Shown here one piece after another: positions 6,341 to 46,447 of a stretch of DNA of 64,000 nt. Each line of letters opens with the position of its first letter. Position 1 is the stretch's first letter. The stretch is taken from assembly GCA_030062745.1 (NCBI GenBank), contig CP099848.1, forward strand, positions 21,005,081-21,069,080, given 5' to 3'. The position numbers and the translations under genes are program-made. The notes beneath the pieces are model-generated. The model did no database searches. It saw only the letters and a list, made by a program, of their open reading frames with translations, and was not told where the DNA came from. The stretch is from Capitulum mitella. Its lineage: Eukaryota; Arthropoda; Thecostraca; Pollicipedomorpha; Pollicipedidae.

Positions 6341-6790
6341 AGTCTTTGAATGCGTATTTCACACAAATCGATGCATTGCAAAACAAATCTGGACCACGTC
6401 ACAAAAACCTGTCCTTGGCCTTTGACGAACTTGACCTGAAATGACTCTGGCGTATATATATATGCGTCTGCATGTGCGCACACGTGTCTTTATTAGGGTC
6501 TTTAAATGCATATTTCATACAAATCGATATGTCGCAGAACAAATCTGAGCAAGGTTACAAGATATTTGGCCTTGGCCTTTAACGACCTTGACCTTCACTG
6601 ACCTTGGAATATGTAAGCGTATCAGTGTGCGCACACGTGTTTTTATTAAAACCTTCGAATGCATGTTTCATACAAACTGACATCTTGCAAAGCAAATCTG
6701 GATCAGGTCGCAAAGCTTGACCTTTGATGCCCTTAACCCTTATTGACCCTGGCTGTGGCCTTGGTACGTCCATCACTTATGCCCGAATGA
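6341..6790. repeat. Three-unit ~155-bp tandem repeat inside the hAT element
   Basis: Units begin near 6342, 6498 and 6652. They share TTTCATACAAA near the start, GCAAAGCAAATCTGGA-like sequence, a cluster of GACCTTGACC-type half-sites, and GTGCGCACACGTGT near the end. The last unit is incomplete. No reading frame runs through the array. Confidence 0.75.
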
Positions 6791-16285: not shown

Positions 16286-16622
16286 AGAGCCGGGTTTCAG
16301 AGTCAGCCCAGTTTGAGACACCGCCGGGCTTCAGGGTCGGCCCAGCTTCAGACAGCGCCGGGTCTCAGAGTCAGCCCACCTTCAGACACCGCCGGGCTTC
16401 AGAGTCAGCCCAGCTTCAGACACCACAGGGCTTCAGAGTCAGCCTAGCTTCAAACACTGCCGGGCTTCAGAGTCAGCCTAGCTTCAAACACCGCCGGACT
16501 TCAGAGTCAGCCTAGCTTCAAACACCGCCAGGCCTCAGAGTCAGCCCAGCTCCAGACACCACAGGGCTTCAGAGTCAGCCCAGCTTCAAACACCGCCGGG
16601 CTTCAGAGCAGAGCGCTCGACT
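16286..16622. repeat. 34-bp minisatellite ending at the Mab-21-like gene's stop codon
   Basis: About ten imperfect units of the form GCTTCAGAGTCAGCCCAGCT then TCAGACACCGCCGG, with variants CACAGG and CTGCCGG. The array runs up to the minus-strand stop codon at 16623-16625, so it would form the proximal 3' untranslated region of that gene. The unit's CCCTGAAG-type sequence resembles the stop-codon context itself. Confidence 0.9.
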
Positions 16623-33697: not shown

Positions 33698-33790
33698 GCG
33701 TCACATCACGGCGCGCGGTACTCCCTGGACGCCTAGCGCGTCACATCACGGCACAGGAAAGGTCGAGGCGCATGACGCGTCACATCATGG
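33698..33790. repeat. Three-unit 40-bp repeat over the protease stop codon
   Basis: GCGTCACATCACGGC begins at 33698 and 33738, and as GCGTCACATCATGG at 33777. The third unit contains the protease gene's last two Met codons and its stop codon, so the tandem repeat begins within the coding end. Confidence 0.7.
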
Positions 33791-33956
33791 GGATGACCAG
33801 GTCGCTGTTGTCCCGGATCCAGCTGAGGTAGGGGCCGACGCGGGTGTAGCCGGCCGGGTCGCTGCTCTCACAGCCGGAGACGGCCACGAAGCTGCTGATG
33901 CCGACCTGGGTCCAGCGGCCCTTCTGCAGCACCATCAGCGGGCCGCCGCTGTCGCC
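33780..33956 (-). CDS. CUB-serine protease exon 7 (Ser region, stop)
   Basis: Acceptor TTCGCCAG precedes GGC-GAC-AGC. The exon encodes GDSGGPLMVLQKGRWTQVG, then SFVAVSGCE and GYTRVGPYLSWIRDN, ending VIPMM and TGA. Ser370 is the nucleophile. The final two Met codons lie in the 40-bp repeat, so the C-terminus may be variable between individuals. Confidence 0.92.
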   Translation of the reverse strand, partial: GDSGGPLMVLQKGRWTQVGISSFVAVSGCESSDPAGYTRVGPYLSWIRDNSDLVIPMM

Positions 33957-36900
33957 CTGGCGAACACACCGCGGGCACCGTCAGAACCGGTACAGCACGA
34001 ACGCGGCACGGGGCGGCGTCTTCGGACATGAGGGGTTCGGTTCGAGCCGTGCACGGGCGTCGTCATCCGCTGGAATGGGCTGAAATCATGGCCGCTGCGT
34101 GTGACCAGGATTCCAATATCATTCACTGTGCGAACCACCGCTCAGACGCCTGGCGGGAGAGTCAGGTTTTCACTGACATGGGGTGACACCTGGCGGTGGT
34201 TTGGTGAAACTTTGGTGTGGGGATCCGACCGCCATGATCTGCACAAACAGCTCAGACTTCCCATCCGCCCTCTCATCTTCGTGAACTCTAATCGTTGTTC
34301 TCAGACCCTTCTCAGATCTCGAATAAAATCCTTATACTTTCCACCACAACCAAAATGCCTCTCTAACATCTCCTTAATGACACGGTTACGAAATGATCAG
34401 AATTAGTCGAAGGAGCCCTTACGACCATTCAACCTAACAAAATTCCAGTAGGTCTAATTGGTCAAGAGCAGTCGGGGCTTTTAAGTCTGCTATTCTTCTG
34501 TTTCCACGCATACATTCGATAAGCCATCCGCAGAGACGTACGTATTCACACACTGCGACAAGCACGAGAATGATGGGTCTGGCTGGCCCGAAATGCCCTG
34601 GTACTTAAACATACAGACGCCGGATCACAGAACAAGAGCGAATCGCCTCCCTCTGGAACCGCTGATGTAGTCCTTGAAATGGTGATCTAGCGACCGCAAG
34701 AGCTCTTGCCATGGATGGAATTATAATGGGGTAGGGGACGCAAGCAAGCAACTAAATTAACATTATGCTCATGGCCGTCCATGGGAAGAACCGAATTCAG
34801 AATGGCATTTGCGTCCCGATTAATTATGGGAAGTTCCACCCTGGCTGCCCCCATGACAGACCAATACAGAGACCGCCGACCAGTGGGTCCGACAAGCTGT
34901 TGGCGGGTCGAAGCCTCACCGAACAGTGAGCCTGTTTGCCGGTGGTGGGCAGGCTGCAGATCTTGAGCGGCGTCACCTGGAGAGGCCAGCGCCCGGCGCA
35001 CTCGCAGTTGCTGATGATGCGCACCTTGCCCAGCTGCAGGATGAAGCTGCCGCCGTGCTGCAACGGTGGAGACGTCATAGATCAGCCGAACTGGTGCTGA
35101 CACGTGGCGCTGAGGTGGTGCTGATGGTCGGGTAGTGGTACACGGACACGCATGCACGGTAAAGGGTCGAAAAATGAACGGCACCTGATGTTCGGTCTGG
35201 TTCCCAGCCAGGGGGCACCCAACTCGAAAACATGCTGTTTTTTCAGTGTAGCGCACATGCAACTCAAAACAGCAGTCAATTCACGCCAGCTTGATCGGCG
35301 CGACTGTATCATTTTGATGGGTTTGCATAAGGTTCGCGAGATCTAGACTGTGCAGAATAAAATGCTGGACTGCCCTAGCTGACGCTGACTTCGATAAAAC
35401 TGAATATAGAGCATATCTGTTCCGCGAGAAATGGTAGCCCAGAATGAGAAGAGACTCACATTCCCTCATCTTTTCATGGAACTCCTTGTTACGCCCATGA
35501 TCATCCACAAACACCGTTCAGCATGATGTATATGCCATCGAGTGCTATGCGCAGCTCAGATGGACAACAAATCCGTTTGTCGATTTGTTTCCTTCTTGGC
35601 TCAACCCATGCAGTAATTTTAGTAAATGCAGCTCATGTGTGTTAACTTACAAGTTACTTACCAACAGTGCTCGTTCTAACGAAATTTTTGGGGGGGATTC
35701 GCGGAAAACTCACGAAATTTGCACATTTGCCCTGCAGACATCAACCAACGTGATGATACAACAGCATCTGACATGAAGTGTAATTCTCCATAGGTTTTCG
35801 TCTTTATCGGAGGGGAGATGCAACTAAAAATGAGGATACGCTATTCCTTGATCTTAACAATGAAAGCCAAGGACAGGATGGGCCACAGATCTCTCTACCA
35901 GGCCACTTCCCAAAATCTTCTGGTCGAGGAGTTGAGGCTTGTCAGTAGATAACGATGTCACAGACTATGACGTAGAATTGCGTCATGGATTCTTTGGCGA
36001 TTCAAATGACTGAATTTGGATAGACAGTGTGACAGTCTGCTTGGAGCAAAGCCTGAATGAAACATCTCGCATTCTCAGAAATTTGATTTCGAAACCTTCC
36101 CATATTTTCGATTGATCCCATAATTTTGAAACTCATGTCAGCCTTGCATTTCCCCAATATATAACATTGGGAGACTGTTTATTGTCATCGTTATGAAGTT
36201 CTCAGGCCATGGCTTCTCGATTTAACCCTCTTTCGGAATAATTCGCTCATGGGTTATAAAATCAGGTTTCCTCGGTATCTGCATAACGGGCGTATTTCAC
36301 GGGCAAAAACTTATTTCATTGACTCCCAGACAGGTCGCGTACTTATCTCGCCCAGCAGCTGCTCACTGGGTCAGTGTGGTAATTCCGTTACAAAGTTATA
36401 CGGGTTATAAAATCCGATTTCCCACCTATCTGCATGTAATGAGGATACTTCACGACCAAATATTTGTTACTTTGGCTTCAAGGCAGGATGCGTTCTCCTC
36501 TTACCCAGTTCACTGGACAAGTGAAGTGATTTCCTTGCAGTTTACGCACAAATCAAAGGGTTCAGTGATATTTTTGTGGTTATGTGGGGCCTTGTACCTT
36601 GAGCTTACTTCAGACGATTTCCGATCCGTAAATTTCCGTAAATGATTGAAAAGGGGCCAAGACGAGGACCCGACAACCTAACCTCCTCCAGATATGGGTT
36701 TCTCAATAGATTTGCCCACTTTATTTTGACCAACGAAAATTTATAAGCTTTTGGTACTATTTGTCACATAAAAAATGCATTTGTTGCAGTGTATATGGGT
36801 ATATATATCTGGTGAGAAGATAGAAAAATAGATGGATACATCCCTTTGGAACTTACTTTCTATTTTCCGCCTATCTGTTATCAACTGCGGCCGTTCTTTT

Positions 36901-39900
36901 TGTTATTATTACTCATTTCCCTTCAAAACCGGCAGGAAATATTGAGGGGGCCCAAACCAACATTGGGGCCCAAATCAACACTGGGTGGACCAGGGGTCTC
37001 TCAAAAGAATACATAATCGACATCCCTCGCTCACATAAATTATGCAAGCTAAGGATGATCCTGGCAAGACAGGTAAATCCAAGAAATCACCAGAAGGGAC
37101 AATCCAACATAATATTTTGGAACTGTTATTTCAGTGGAGCATTGGGCAGCCCACTAGGCCGTCACGGCTAGTGGGCGTGTGATCTAGGCCTGTCTTCACA
37201 TTTAATTTTTTTTTGACCCGGCTCTGTATCGCTCTTATGCGCAACGCCCAAGCCCTAGCCGGGACTAAAAAAAAATGGGATTTCATCCTTTTTCACGGGA
37301 CCTTCTTTTCACCTACTTTCCCATAGGCAAGCATAAATCCACTGGCAATAAAGACCCTCTCGTTACCACTAGACCAACTTCTGCTGCACAGTGCAGGGTC
37401 ATGATGTGTCATCCACCACTCATTCACTCCCATTGGAGCCATTTTGAACAAAAAGTCAATCGAAATTGACTTGAACGTATCATCCAAGGTTTTCAAGGAT
37501 AACCTTTACGAATATGTGCATGGGCCTAACTCGTTGCTATGGAATTAATTAGCCCAGCTCAACCTGTTTTGGGATGGGAATCAGCTTTTGAGCCGTTTCC
37601 CCAATTGGGAACAGGTTTTAAATTTGAGAGAAGAAATCCCACCTTTCCCCCTAGCCATTATTTGGACCTTTCAGGTTGGAAATCAAGATTCTGAGAGGGG
37701 AATATCCCCTTCCTCCTTTAAAGTGAGCACTACTTAAGAGTTACGAATTCCTCAGATACTTACATAGGGCATACAATTACTTCCAGAAAACTCGTCAACA
37801 TGATGAGTGTCCAGAATAGACAGGGTGCGTTTCAGGCATCAAAAGTTGTCCGGCGTCTCGACCTCTTTAAGCCACGTTCCTTCTCCCCGCCTGCCAGTTA
37901 TTGCCACGCTACCAGCCTACTGGAAGCACTTTTCTCCATCGAACGTTGAGGCTACCCGGGTTGTCCACGGAACATCGTCGCTTCGTGACGCAGCATACAA
38001 GGATTCGAACAGGTCTTAACCAAACTGACTGCACTTTCTTCCCCGTCCCTTGGTCCTAAAACGTAGAAACGATTCACATGCGGAAAAGACTCTCTGTTCA
38101 AACAGCAAAAAAACTGACAGTAGAAAGCAGCCATGAAGCGAAGTGGCACGCAGAACCACGGCTGGAGAAGTGCATGAAAAATGTCATTTTTGTTATCCCG
38201 ACCTTCTCTGTAACTACGTGCTGACCGACAACAGCATCAGCCCTGCGAGTCACACCCCAGTGGCTCGGCGGCATCCAACCCAACCGACCTGGCCTTGGTG
38301 CGTCTTCCCCCAGCCGGCGATGCCCGCCTCCAGGCCAGAGAGCTCCTCCTCCAGCTCCAGAACCGACGGCAGGCAGATCGGCTGGATGTAGTCAGTGAAC
38401 TGAACGTCTTCCGGGAGTCTTAAACGATCAGCAAACGGGTAATGTGACAGCTGCGCCGGGTGAGACGTTGAATCAGTCGGCAGAAGTCTGAGATGGATGC
38501 TCACGACTGTCCACAGGTTATTACCCGCTGAGAGACGCTGGCAGCGGTCTAACTTCCCTCACAATGAACTCCATGCATTAGTATCAATGGCTATAGGTCA
38601 GGCAACAGCCTTAGTAGTCGCCGTTGCTGGGACAAACAGCAGGCAACATAGGGTCCCGCCCGGAATTCGGGCCCGTTCGCGTCTCACTCGATCAGTCCGA
38701 TGTCGTGTTCGCGGTTGAGCTTGTGAATGCCCCACTGCGGGTGCTGTCGGAATTTGGTGGCGTTGACCACCAGTGCCGTGTGGCCCGGCCGACTGACGTC
38801 CAGGGTGCCCAGGCGCAGCTCCGACCAGACGGCCGACTCCAGACAGTGCGCCGCCGTCAGCAGGAACCGCTGGCTGATCAGCGTCGCCGCGCAGTACAGC
38901 TGCCGGCGGGGCCACGGCGAGGTCACGGCAGGTCACGGCGCGGCCAGGTCTCGGCCGCGGCGGGTCGCGGCGATCTCAACAGAGCCAGGCTTGGGTCACG
39001 ACTGAATCATGGCGGGCTCAGGCCCGGGTCTACGGTGGGGTCGTAGCGGGGTCACAATGGGGTTACGGAGAGATCAAACCGGATTTGCGGCAGGGTCACG
39101 GCGGGGTCACGTAGGGGTCACGGTGGGATCAGCCTGAAGCTATGCTGAGAGAAGACCGGAATCATGCCGAGCTCAGGCCAGGATTACGCCGTGTCGAGCA
39201 GAGACCAATGACAGTCGTGTGGTTCAAAAAGAGGCCACAGTGTTGCAAAAAGGGTAGAGGCTAGAAGGTCAGGATGCGTCACTTGTCTGGTCAAAACAGC
39301 CGTGAGAGGGGATAAGCTGGGCCACTCTCGTTTGCGGATAACTGCTGGTCGGCAAACCCAGTGCAGTGACGCAAGTCGCCTCAGGTCACAAGAAGTTTCT
39401 GTGGGTCACTCACTGCACTCCGATTTTTAGCGCGAGAGGTCCAGACATATCACCACCGTCCGAAAAGGTTGCCAGTTGCTTCCGACGATATAAAACAATG
39501 TGTCAGCCACTTGCGTAGGCCGCCGTGTTACGCCATTATATGATAGTTTTTTTATAATTGTTATTGTAGAAAGGACATAAAACAACAGCGTGATAAAAAA
39601 AACTAGGACATGGTGAGAATCATGTTTTATCCTGTCCTAGTTCTACATCGAACTGTGGTAATAAATCGACCAGCGCTGAGCTCATTAAGCATGCTAACCA
39701 GCCACGAGCACACAGAAGTAACAGCCGAGTAGCGTCGCCTTTAAAAGCTGCGACACCGTGGAATTGGTGTCATTTACTGACACGCCCGAGCCTGAACGCT
39801 CCTTCCTATTAACGACAGGTGTGATGGGCGGAGCATGGCACGTGGCACACAGACTAGGTCTGGTGACCCCGCTGGGGTGATTGATTATCTATGTCGGTCA

Positions 39901-42900: not shown

Positions 42901-45900
42901 ATGATGTTCTGCCTTGTTCGACTGCTTTGATTTGATTCCTTACTTTCATTCCGATCATTCCGAAAATCTGAAGCACTGCCGTCGTAAGCCCTTGATGGCT
43001 TGCACTCGGATTGCACAACGGCTTGACTGCTTATCAGAGCATCTTTTGCCGCTGACGTCATGCCCTCCCTTCCCCTGCATCGCCCGGCCGCCGTCTGCTC
43101 GGTGTTCGGCGCAGGCAGAAATTTTGAAGTTTAACAGCTTCTTCATACAATGGCAAACTGGTCTGACTTTTACATATTGCCCCGACTTTCGATCGTACCT
43201 CTAGGGATGAAATGACACTAACTTCAAAAAATTCGATCATTCCATCCGGATATTCGAGTGCACCCATCCGAATGCTCGAATCCAAAAACCTATCCGAATT
43301 CTCGGCTCTGATGTTCATACACCTGGCTGTATTGGGTGCTAATTTGTCCTGTATCCGGGAGGGAGAAGATGTGAGTGTTAGCATGAGTTGTCATCACACG
43401 TGCTGGTTCAGACAGCGGGCGGCGGTGGCGGTCTCCACACCGGTAACCGGCCCAAAGGTAGCGGCCTGTAAATTACAGCCTATAGCAATGGCTCGCGACT
43501 GCTTGTCCATGACGACAACGAAGCGAAGACGGGGAAGTGAAATCGCCTGATTTTTCGGGCTAAAAAAATCGTATGTAGGTTTATAACTCAGTGACAACTA
43601 CCAGGAACCGTCTATTTGCACGTTCTCGATCGCTGTGTGCATCATTACCGCACCATCAGTGCAATGTCCCGCCAGTATTGTCCTGACACGGGCCGCAGCC
43701 ACTGCTGACGTCTGGGACGCAGCAGACCGCCTGCGGGCTGTCAGACGGACCGCACTCCAGACAGCAAGGCTCCATTCAGGCTCCGGCAGCTCTCGGCGGC
43801 TTCGCGCGGCTCTCGGCGGACGGCTGGCCGGCTCCGTTGCGTCACGTCCGGCCCGGCTCTCGCCGGCCCTGCGCCCGTCACGGCCCAAAACCCTGCCGGG
43901 TCTCAGCGGCCCTCCCGTCACGCCCGCGTCGTCCGTGACGCCGCTTGCCGGTGACGTCACTTCCGCGCCGCTCACCTGTTTCTGCTTGGCGGTGTGCGTA
44001 ACGATGTAGACGACGAACGGCAGCTCGCCCGGCTTGGCGTCCTCGCCATCGACGATACGTCTGACGCGCGACCGGCCGCAGTCTGAAACGGCGCCGCGAC
44101 TGAGTGACGGTTCGCCGGCCGGGGCGTTACGGGGGCACGAGAAGTCGTGCCGATCACGGCCGAAACGCGCCGAGAGAGACGCGACCCGCCGGTGTTTGTT
44201 CATGTCCTCTGGCGGCGAATTGTCTCTGTGCTATTTTGTTGTCTCTACAGAGCCGAAGACATACCTTTGCGGTACGTTTGAACTTTTACCGTATGGGAGA
44301 CGACGACGAAAAGTGAAAAGAGATGCACACAGCATGAGGGAAGGAAATATTGGTTTCGCGCTAATTTGCATACGTTCGTCTCCCTGACAAGACCTCAGCA
44401 CAACCTGCCAAGTATATGTTCATAGTAAACGGAACTGAGAGGATGATTTTGCATTCAAACATTGAGTGCAGCGCCAGGGCGCCAGCACCGTTGTGCCTTA
44501 TGCAAAGCATAGCACATAAACTTCTATGCTCAGCCGACCATCAGTGATTTGTTTCTCACCAACTAACCTACGTGCTATCGCTTGTAAGATAATTTCATGT
44601 GAAGATTACCCAGCTCTGGCATCTCCAAGTCCCAGAAAAACCAGCCTCCGTTATCTGAGTTGCCAGAGACTAGTTGGCCGCTTTCTGGGTAACCAGTCTC
44701 ATCTGACCCTCATATGCCACGGCAGACTGACCTCTGGCCCGGCAGACTGGCCCCTAGCCCCATCACAGCCCGGCAGACTGACCTCCGGCCCCCCTCACAG
44801 CCCGGCAGACTGGCCTCTGGCCCCCTCACAGCCCGGCAGACTGGCCTCTGGCCCCCTCACAGCCCGGCAGACTGACCTCTGGCCCCCTCACAGCCCGGCA
44901 TACTGACCTCTGGCCCCCTCACAGCCCGGCAGACTGACCTCTGGCCCCATCACAGCCCGGCAGACACCCGGCCCCATCACAGCCCGGCAGACTGACCTCT
45001 GGCCTCCTCACAGCCCGGCAGACTGACCTCTGGCCCCCTCACAGCCCGGCATACTGACCTCTGGCCCCCTCACAGCCCGGCAGACTGACCTCTGGCCCCA
45101 TCACAGCCCGGCAGACTGACCTCTGGCCTCCTCACAGCCCGGCAGACTGACCTCTGGCCCCCTCACAGCCCGGCAGACTGACCTCTGGCCCCCTCACAGC
45201 CCGGCATACTGGCCTCTGGCCCCCTCACAGCCCGGCAGACTGGCCTCTGGCCCCCTCACAGCCCGGCATACTGACCTCTGGCCCCCTCACAGCCCGGCAG
45301 ACTGGCCTCTGGCCCCCTCACAGCCCGGCAGACTGACCTCTGGCCCCATCACAGCCCGGCATACTGACCTCTGGCCCCCTCACAGCCCGGCAGACTGGCC
45401 TCTGGCCTCCTCACAGCCCGGCAGACTGACCTCTGGCCTCCTCACAGCCCGGCAGACTGACCTCTGGCCTCCTCACAGCCCGGCAGACTGGCCTCTGGCC
45501 CCCTCACAGCCCGGCAGACTGACCTCTGGCCCCCTCACAGCCCGGCAGACTGACCTCTGGCCCCATCACAGCCCGGCATACTGACCTCTGGGCCCCTCAC
45601 AGCCCGGCATACTGACCTCTGGCCCCCTCACAGCCCGGCATACTGACCTCTGGCCCCCTCACAGCCCGGCAGACTGACCTCTGGCCCCATCACAGCCCGG
45701 CAGACTGACCTCTGGCCTCCTCACAGCCCGGCAGATTGGCCTCTGGCCTCCTCACAGCCCGGCATACTGGCCTCTGGCCCCCTCACAGCCCGGCAGACTG
45801 ACCTCCGGCCTCTTTGTAGCGCATGGCACCCAACTGTCGGTCGCTGCGGCCGGTCTCGGCGTCCAAACCGCGCACCAAACAGCTGTAGCCCCGCCGCTGC

Positions 45901-46447
45901 AGCAGGTAGTTGGCCGAGAACTCGAGCGGCACATCTTGGCCAGGCGGCGCCTCCACGCGCAGCGGTGCCGTGTCGCACTGGTACCACTCCCGGCCGTAGA
46001 CCACGCCGCGGCCGGGGAACGTCAGGAAGTCGCCCCACAGCCGCCAGTTGAGCCAGGGAACCACCAGCGAGTCCAGGTCGACGTCCGTGCAGACCAGCGA
46101 CACGGTTGTGTTGGCGTCGTCGGGCTGCAGCAGGTAGCGCTGGCAGGCGCCGCGCGGGTACGCCAGCGGGTAGTTCTCGGAGCTGACGTGCACGGCGCGG
46201 CCGCGGCCGACCCTCGTGACGCGCTGCGGGCAGCTGCCCAGCCCCGTCAGCGGGAAGATGGCCGTCGCCGGCGTCAGGCCGGCCAGCACCGCCTGTCGGC
46301 ACGCCGCAGCCTCGTCACCGATGACGTCACCGACACGGGTCAAGCGAGGAGGCGGCGACATGCATCTTCCGCCTGAACGATCGTCTGATTGTGACGGCAA
46401 TGTCTGATGTAAAGTTCGAGATAATCGAGGAAATTTAGCTGGAAATG

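What the first reader, a model, noticed from the sequence alone, without database searches (positions are those of the whole stretch)
44719..45818. Intronic minisatellite made of copies of the adjacent 5' splice site
Seen directly: the minus-strand exon 2 donor of the CUB-protease gene (CGGAG/GTCAGTCTGCCGGG, donor GT at 45802-45801) is repeated about 36 times in tandem, 31 bp apart. About 25 units, counting the real one, keep GAGGTCAGT. The exon is thus followed by a ladder of near-identical decoy donors. Use of any decoy would retain an in-frame TGA six codons into the intron. The product would then be a secreted CUB domain without its protease, or a transcript open to nonsense-mediated decay. 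Array length could tune splicing and vary between individuals. I know of no described gene with this arrangement, but could not search.
Basis: partly seen in the sequence, partly recalled or inferred. Interest (0 to 1): 0.85.

Follow-up and report, generated by a model that had tools for sequence, protein, structure and literature searches.

The report
Splice donors seeding intronic minisatellites
The repeat array is real: it looks like repeated copying of the end of an exon with the start of the next intron, and similar arrays sit at the exon ends of many other genes in this animal genome, which suggests that working splice sites can be birthplaces of repeated DNA.

Summary
The array is real: about 35 tandem 31-bp units on the minus strand, starting at the exon 2 donor of a CUB-trypsin gene; 25 copies of GAGGTCAGT, none elsewhere in the window. 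A paralog on another contig supports gene and donor, and its homologous donor also starts a donor-derived array (28-bp unit, 8.6 copies). The claim that no such gene is described is wrong: human ABCA7 intron 18 is the same arrangement, IFI6 similar. The decoys look unconserved: the T of the donor GT is tied as the most variable base. The larger finding is genome-wide. Sampled minisatellites with a donor motif start at likely coding exons in 29 of 47 cases, against 0 of 19 for a one-base-changed motif and 1 of 20 isolated donor motifs; 14 of 47 upstream frames hit Pfam against 0 of 29 controls. In 11 of those 14 the repeats copy 12-31 nt of exon, so the exon is the likely source. Best reading: tandem duplications across 5' splice sites are tolerated because the first donor still works, then grow. 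Splicing effects are untested; low-level decoy use, as in ABCA7, is likely. The donor-biased, genome-wide extent appears new.

The parts
45803..46233 (-). exon 2 of the CUB-trypsin gene (CUB-like domain and linker), ends ...KEAG, phase 1
   Evidence: acceptor ggctgggcag|CTGCC and donor CGGAG|GTCAGT; 71% aa identity to a paralog exon; profile of 4 family members matches C1s and PCPE CUB domains, E 2e-4 to 4e-4; this member alone has no Pfam CUB match
45801..45802 (-). presumed authentic 5' splice site (GT) of exon 2, first unit of the array
   Evidence: homologous position and phase in the C1 paralog
44720..45810 (-). 31-bp minisatellite, about 35 units; each unit = last ~8 nt of exon 2 plus first ~23 nt of intron 2
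43976..44082 (-). exon 3: start of the trypsin domain (DCGRSRVRRIVDGEDAKPG...)
38688..38899 (-). exon 4: TAAHC (His) to HDIGLI (Asp)
   Evidence: end set by eye (one base shorter than)
38289..38418 (-). exon 5; donor CCAG|GTCGGT is a second +3C donor in the gene
   Evidence: start set by eye
34920..35057 (-). exon 6 (HGGSFILQLGKVRIISNCEC...)
   Evidence: boundaries set by eye (one search used others)
33780..33956 (-). exon 7: GDSGGP (Ser) to stop

Best explanation
The array is a splice-donor-seeded minisatellite. A tandem duplication spanning the exon 2/intron 2 boundary copied about 8 nt of exon and 23 nt of intron, and the copies multiplied and were homogenised inside the intron. It was tolerated because the first donor, next to the exon, can still be used, so the protein is unchanged. 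It is one of a genome-wide class at the 5' splice sites of unrelated genes. Shown: the array, the gene model by sequence and paralog, the paralogous array, copied exon tails in other genes, the enrichment at likely coding exon ends, and the lack of conservation of the decoys. Inferred: mostly first-donor use, low-level leakage to downstream copies (giving a truncated CUB-only product or NMD), and near-neutral growth.
For: Array and donor. Paralog array at the homologous donor. Counts for three spaced donor motifs against the same pattern read backwards: AGGTCAGT 918 vs 140, AGGTGAGT 151 vs 20, one-base control AGGACAGT 183 vs 114. Coding score >=0.2 just upstream of the first copy: 16 of 27, 13 of 20 and 0 of 19 in that order; isolated donor motifs 1 of 20. 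Pfam E<1e-3: 14 of 47 donor-motif arrays against 0 of 29 control frames. In 11 of the 14 Pfam-supported arrays the second copy repeats 12-31 nt of exon tail. Decoy T not conserved.
Against: No RNA evidence that the first donor is the one used. 18 of 47 donor-motif arrays show no coding score >=0.2 upstream (non-coding exons or non-donor arrays). In 3 of the 14 Pfam-supported arrays the copied tail is only 3 nt, little more than the motif. The preference for functional donors over identical motifs (odds ratio 31, p 9e-6) is more than plain tolerance predicts, so a birth or retention bias may be at work. GC context was not matched, and several control frames are short (some under 40 aa), which lowers their chance of a Pfam match. 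The isolated-motif sample is small (20, four without a frame), and its one positive was brought in by a sequence match to the window donor.
Confidence: 0.76

Rival explanations
1. Functional decoy ladder: array length tunes splicing and yields a secreted CUB-only protein or NMD, and the decoys are kept for that.
For: 24 decoys match the real donor from -3 to +6; a TGA six codons in is common to all; an array is present in two paralogs at the same donor; in ABCA7 one-unit retention occurs and exon 19 skipping rises with length, though the retention itself did not depend on length (PMC5954066, passages).
Against: The donor T is a most-variable column; the two units next to the real donor are GC; in the paralog 3 of 8 full units are GC and decoy 4 (+84) would be in frame without a stop, so the product would differ; the class covers unrelated genes.
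Confidence: 0.1
2. Functional donors are active hot spots of minisatellite birth (co-transcriptional DNA breaks, R-loops or U1-bound nascent RNA), not just tolerant sites. Not exclusive of the best explanation.
For: Likely functional donors among arrays 29 of 47 against isolated identical motifs 1 of 20; independent recurrence or long persistence in two paralogs whose fourfold sites are 41 of 61 identical.
Against: No mechanism was tested; GC content and gene density of the sites were not matched; a conserved first copy could also anchor and preserve the motif in old arrays.
Confidence: 0.3
3. The array came first and the exon end was captured from it.
For: In the window gene and its paralog the exon tail shared with the array is short (8 and 3 nt), and the linker residues there differ between the paralogs.
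Against: In SAC3/GANP, BAH, dynein and Ras genes the copied tail (31, 26, 19 and 16 nt) lies inside the Pfam-matched stretch, so there the exon is older.
Confidence: 0.08
4. Ordinary GC-rich minisatellite lying by chance beside an exon, or a length artefact of assembly.
For: The window is minisatellite-rich: 35 TRF rows in 64 kb, some overlapping.
Against: One-base control arrays reach the coding score in 0 of 19 cases; two motifs, two paralogs and many genes agree. Assembly could alter copy number, not the junction.
Confidence: 0.04

Closest known systems
ABCA7 intron 18 VNTR (human; PMC5954066, passages seen)
   Same: [quoted passage not shown] the first GT of the VNTR is the donor; many units; a one-unit retention isoform that is out of frame is reported.
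   Different: One human gene; polymorphic (about 12-427 units) and tested with RNA. Here an unnamed animal genome, no RNA, and many genes, with units that often also carry exon tail.
IFI6/G1P3 minisatellite, Turri et al. 1995 (title seen in reference lists of three papers and one sentence in PMC4526556; the paper itself is not held)
   Same: A minisatellite that supplies multiple splice donor sites; downstream repeat units are said to be used as donors.
   Different: Single gene with reported transcripts; here use is untested.
Internal tandem repeats at exon-intron boundaries in human segmental duplications (PMC2812944, passages)
   Same: Minisatellite-type repeats (on average 30-bp units) at exon-intron boundaries; 27 intron modifications reported.
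   Different: Found as copy-number differences between recent human paralogs; no general link between donors and array birth was seen in the passages shown.
Intron gain by tandem duplication (PMC4974935, listing and start of abstract)
   Same: Tandem genomic duplication linked to intron structure.
   Different: There a new intron is gained; here an existing intron is lengthened from its 5' end.

Membership tests
Donor-spanning intronic VNTR (ABCA7 type) | tandem array directly abutting the exon, first unit holding the authentic donor | tested here: met
   by sequence and paralog comparison; paralog
Donor-spanning intronic VNTR (ABCA7 type) | copy number varies between individuals | not testable with these tools
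   one assembly only
Donor-spanning intronic VNTR (ABCA7 type) | downstream units used as donors in RNA | not testable with these tools
   no transcripts in hand
Selected regulatory decoy array | decoy donor dinucleotide conserved above other columns | tested here: not met
   T of GT 22:9, tied most variable column; 15 of 49 one-base motif variants hit it in 11 other arrays, 13 of them in two arrays
Genome-wide donor-seeded minisatellite class | arrays with a donor motif start at coding exons more often than arrays with a one-base-changed motif | tested here: met
   29 of 47 vs 0 of 19, p 1e-6; Pfam 14 of 47 vs 0 of 29, p 5e-4
CUB-serine protease | trypsin domain with catalytic triad | tested here: met
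   PF00089 E 2.6e-41; TAAHC, HDIGLI and GDSGGP present
CUB-serine protease | N-terminal CUB domain | tested here: inconclusive
   no Pfam match for this member; Pfam CUB matched 2 of 4 family members, best E 0.022; profile of the four matches C1s and PCPE CUB domains, E 2e-4 to 4e-4
CUB-serine protease | signal peptide (secretion) | not tested
   exon 1 was not located

The most novel reading that the evidence does not exclude
In this genome functional 5' splice sites are hot spots where minisatellites are born or retained: by rough scaling some 160-250 arrays with three exact AGGTCAGT copies, about 60% of the sampled ones at likely coding exons, with an odds ratio near 30 over isolated identical motifs. 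Introns here would grow from their 5' ends by repeated copying of the exon-intron junction, leaving ladders of unused donors.
Probability: 0.55. Interest if true: 0.82.

Novelty: new variant of a known kind. Interest (0 to 1): 0.7.

Why it matters
Single human genes with a donor-containing VNTR are known one by one (ABCA7, IFI6). A genome with perhaps a hundred or more such arrays would turn them into a natural experiment: how the spliceosome picks one donor out of dozens of near-identical copies, whether extra donors cost fitness, how introns lengthen, and whether splicing or transcription makes exon ends prone to tandem duplication. Each is testable with long-read RNA and a few individuals of one species.

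Tried and rejected
Unit homology between the two paralogous arrays outside the donor core: not significant (shuffle p 0.11; 9% of 1,555 GC-rich genomic 22-mers score as well), so shared ancestry versus independent birth is open. Higher-order structure in the window array: none seen (lags 1-15). Phase of the array edge relative to the donor: 2-40 nt in 28 of 29 arrays, spread over the unit, so not a useful test. Single-member Pfam for CUB: negative. Frame preference of unit lengths: looked at by eye, not tested. G-quadruplex motifs: 2 in the array by a loose pattern, not pursued. Preference for GTCAGT over GTGAGT arrays: isolated-site counts (9 vs 4 in 114 kb) are too few to interpret. AGGTAAGT and acceptor-motif searches: never answered by the tool. 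In one search the ends of exons 4 and 6 and the start of exon 5 were off by one to three bases, so its joined frame breaks in exon 7; boundaries were mended by eye. In one search the paralog exon was first compared in the wrong frame; redone.

Full report
Observation. On the minus strand of the window a 31-bp unit is repeated 34.7 times at 44737-45810 with 93% matches and no indels by TRF. My own split gives 31 units of exactly 31 nt plus edge units. GAGGTCAGT occurs 25 times on the minus strand, all in this array and counting the real donor, and nowhere on the plus strand. The array takes 63% of the 1,720-bp intron.

The gene. Exons 2 to 7 can be read on the minus strand from 46233 to 33780 (some boundaries were off by one to three bases and were mended by eye). 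The joined protein matches Pfam Trypsin (E 2.6e-41), and the catalytic His, Asp and Ser motifs are present. The best match of its protease part among solved structures is Hypoderma collagenase (E 2e-34). The CUB name is a family inference: this member alone does not match Pfam CUB, but a profile of four family members matches the CUB domains of C1s and PCPE at E 2e-4 to 4e-4. The window lies in an unnamed 477-Mb, 16-contig genome; I did not identify the species. A paralog on contig C1 is 71% identical over exon 2, and tblastn finds all of exons 2 to 7 there in order, with matching residues at the exon 2/3 junction.

A second array at the same donor. The C1 paralog's exon 2 donor, CGTGGAG|GTCAGT, is also followed by a tandem array: 28-bp unit, 8.6 copies. 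Its eight full units repeat GAG|G[TC][CT]AGT, three of them with GC. Outside the donor core the two units are not significantly similar, and fourfold sites of the paralogs' exon 2 are 41 of 61 identical. Either the arrays are old and have turned over, or they arose twice at one splice site. A more distant CUB-trypsin relative on C4 reads through CUB and protease without an intron there (L012).

A genome-wide class. I searched the whole genome for three AGGTCAGT copies spaced 10-40 nt apart: 918 matches against 140 for the pattern read backwards. The canonical donor AGGTGAGT gives 151 against 20. A motif with the donor T changed, AGGACAGT, gives 183 against 114. Hits within one array overlap, so I worked with distinct arrays, grouped by hand from listings that show about the first 100 places. 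The listing holds 27 distinct arrays (C1 and most of C2); all 27 were examined. From I took 20 of the first 21 distinct arrays, leaving out one near-identical copy (C6:6633480). From I took the first 20. The window array and the C1 paralog array are not among these.

Test 1, coding signature. For each array I asked whether the open frame ending at the first copy has the third-position GC excess of coding DNA (best of three frames, threshold 0.2). The threshold was set after seeing the AGGTCAGT set, and was then applied unchanged to the other two. Result: AGGTCAGT 16 of 27, AGGTGAGT 13 of 20, control AGGACAGT 0 of 19 (one further control array had no open frame); 29 of 47 against 0 of 19 gives p 1e-6. 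Of 1,046 random AGGT sites with a frame 12% reach it. Isolated AGGT[CGA]AGT sites, not in arrays, reach it in 1 of 20, four of the 20 having no frame, and the one positive is a locus fetched because it matched the window donor. Odds ratio of arrays over isolated sites 31, p 9e-6.

Test 2, protein families. The same frames were scanned against Pfam. E below 1e-3: 9 of 27 AGGTCAGT arrays (CobW, POLO box, SAC3/GANP, kringle, Ras, adenosine deaminase, Sec63 Brl, BAH, COMP; adenosine deaminase and BAH are below Pfam's curated cut-off) and 5 of 20 AGGTGAGT arrays (dynein heavy chain, Dor1, PDZ, MITF/TFEB, VPS9), against 0 of 19 control arrays and 0 of 10 frames from the downstream side of arrays (10 of the 11 such frames were sent; one had a weak match, E 0.0098). 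14 of 47 against 0 of 29 gives p 5e-4. Several control frames are short, which favours this contrast somewhat. Names such as Rab, ROR, polo kinase and Brr2 for individual hits are my recall on top of the Pfam families.

Test 3, polarity. In 11 of the 14 Pfam-supported arrays the second copy repeats the exon tail over 12 to 31 nt, for example 22 nt in the POLO-box gene, 31 nt in SAC3/GANP and 29 nt in the kringle gene; in the other three (adenosine deaminase, COMP, Dor1) the shared tail is only 3 nt. In SAC3/GANP, BAH, dynein and Ras the copied tail (31, 26, 19 and 16 nt) lies inside the stretch that matches the Pfam profile; in the others it lies further along the same open frame, wholly or partly beyond the matched stretch. 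So at least in those four the conserved exon is the source and the array the derivative. For the window locus alone the shared tail is only about 8 nt.

Are the decoys kept? In the window array the T of the donor GT is tied as the most variable of 31 columns (22 T, 9 C). In eleven other arrays that base is the most frequently altered of the eight motif positions, 15 of 49 one-base variants, though two arrays supply 13 of those 15. There is no sign that decoys are maintained.

How it most likely works. A tandem duplication across a donor leaves the original donor beside its exon; if that one is used, everything added is intron. Such events are therefore close to silent and can grow by slippage or unequal exchange (inference). 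This explains why they persist, but not by itself why likely functional donors are so over-represented relative to identical motifs elsewhere. A birth or retention bias at working splice sites is the open and most interesting part. Consequence for this gene: probably rare use of downstream copies, giving a TGA after six codons and a CUB-only product or decay. That step is inferred from ABCA7, not shown.

Comparison with what is known. ABCA7 intron 18 carries a 25-bp VNTR whose first GT is the exon 18 donor, about 12 to 427 units in people, with a one-unit-retention isoform; that isoform did not depend on array length, whereas exon 19 skipping did (PMC5954066, passages). IFI6 has a minisatellite reported to supply several donors (title and one sentence seen in citing papers; original not held). 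Human segmental duplications show tandem repeats at exon-intron boundaries (PMC2812944, passages). So the locus is a new member of a known kind. A genome-wide, donor-biased class did not turn up in seven library searches on the subject (open-licence papers only; two searches were about the protease and barnacle genomes), which is weak evidence of absence.

Scale. 27 arrays over about 80 Mb scale to roughly 160 in the genome by length, or about 250 by hit count (100 of 918 hits listed), for exact AGGTCAGT triplets alone. These are rough, and the C1 paralog array does not appear in the listing because too few of its copies are exact.

Limits. No transcripts, no second individual, no annotated genome and no outgroup. 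GC context was not matched. The AGGTAAGT and acceptor-motif searches did not complete by the tool.

Noticed in passing
L001 (C6:8114179-8117195), match 1501-1517: The only exact copy of GAGGTCAGTCTGCCGGG outside the window array in this genome (1 of 18 places) is at what looks like an exon end of an integrin-beta-like gene (my reading of the sequence); I saw no array there.
   Followed up: partly
window 38904-39131 (minus strand): The intron before exon 4 carries degenerate 11-bp repeats (three TRF rows, with gaps) that run close up to the acceptor.
   Followed up: no
C1:31136847-31137004: In the paralog a 48-bp x 3.2 repeat ends about 29 nt before the exon 7 acceptor, so acceptor-side arrays may exist too.
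   Followed up: no
L010 (C1 paralog array): Decoy 4 (GAG|GTTAGT, +84) would insert 28 codons in frame before the first TAG; TRF also sees an 84-bp (3 x 28) period.
   Followed up: partly
window 44782: A unit near the far end of the array shares CCGGAGGTCAGT with the exon-adjacent unit, the only other such copy, as if the edges escaped homogenisation.
   Followed up: no
window 16289-16608: A 34-bp x 9.4 minisatellite without AGGT in its consensus on either strand; its relation to any gene is unknown.
   Followed up: no
window 6344-6676; C1:31154280-31154699; C1:31172951-31173395: Repeats with a 153-bp period occur in the window and near the paralog; whether they are related was not tested.
   Followed up: no
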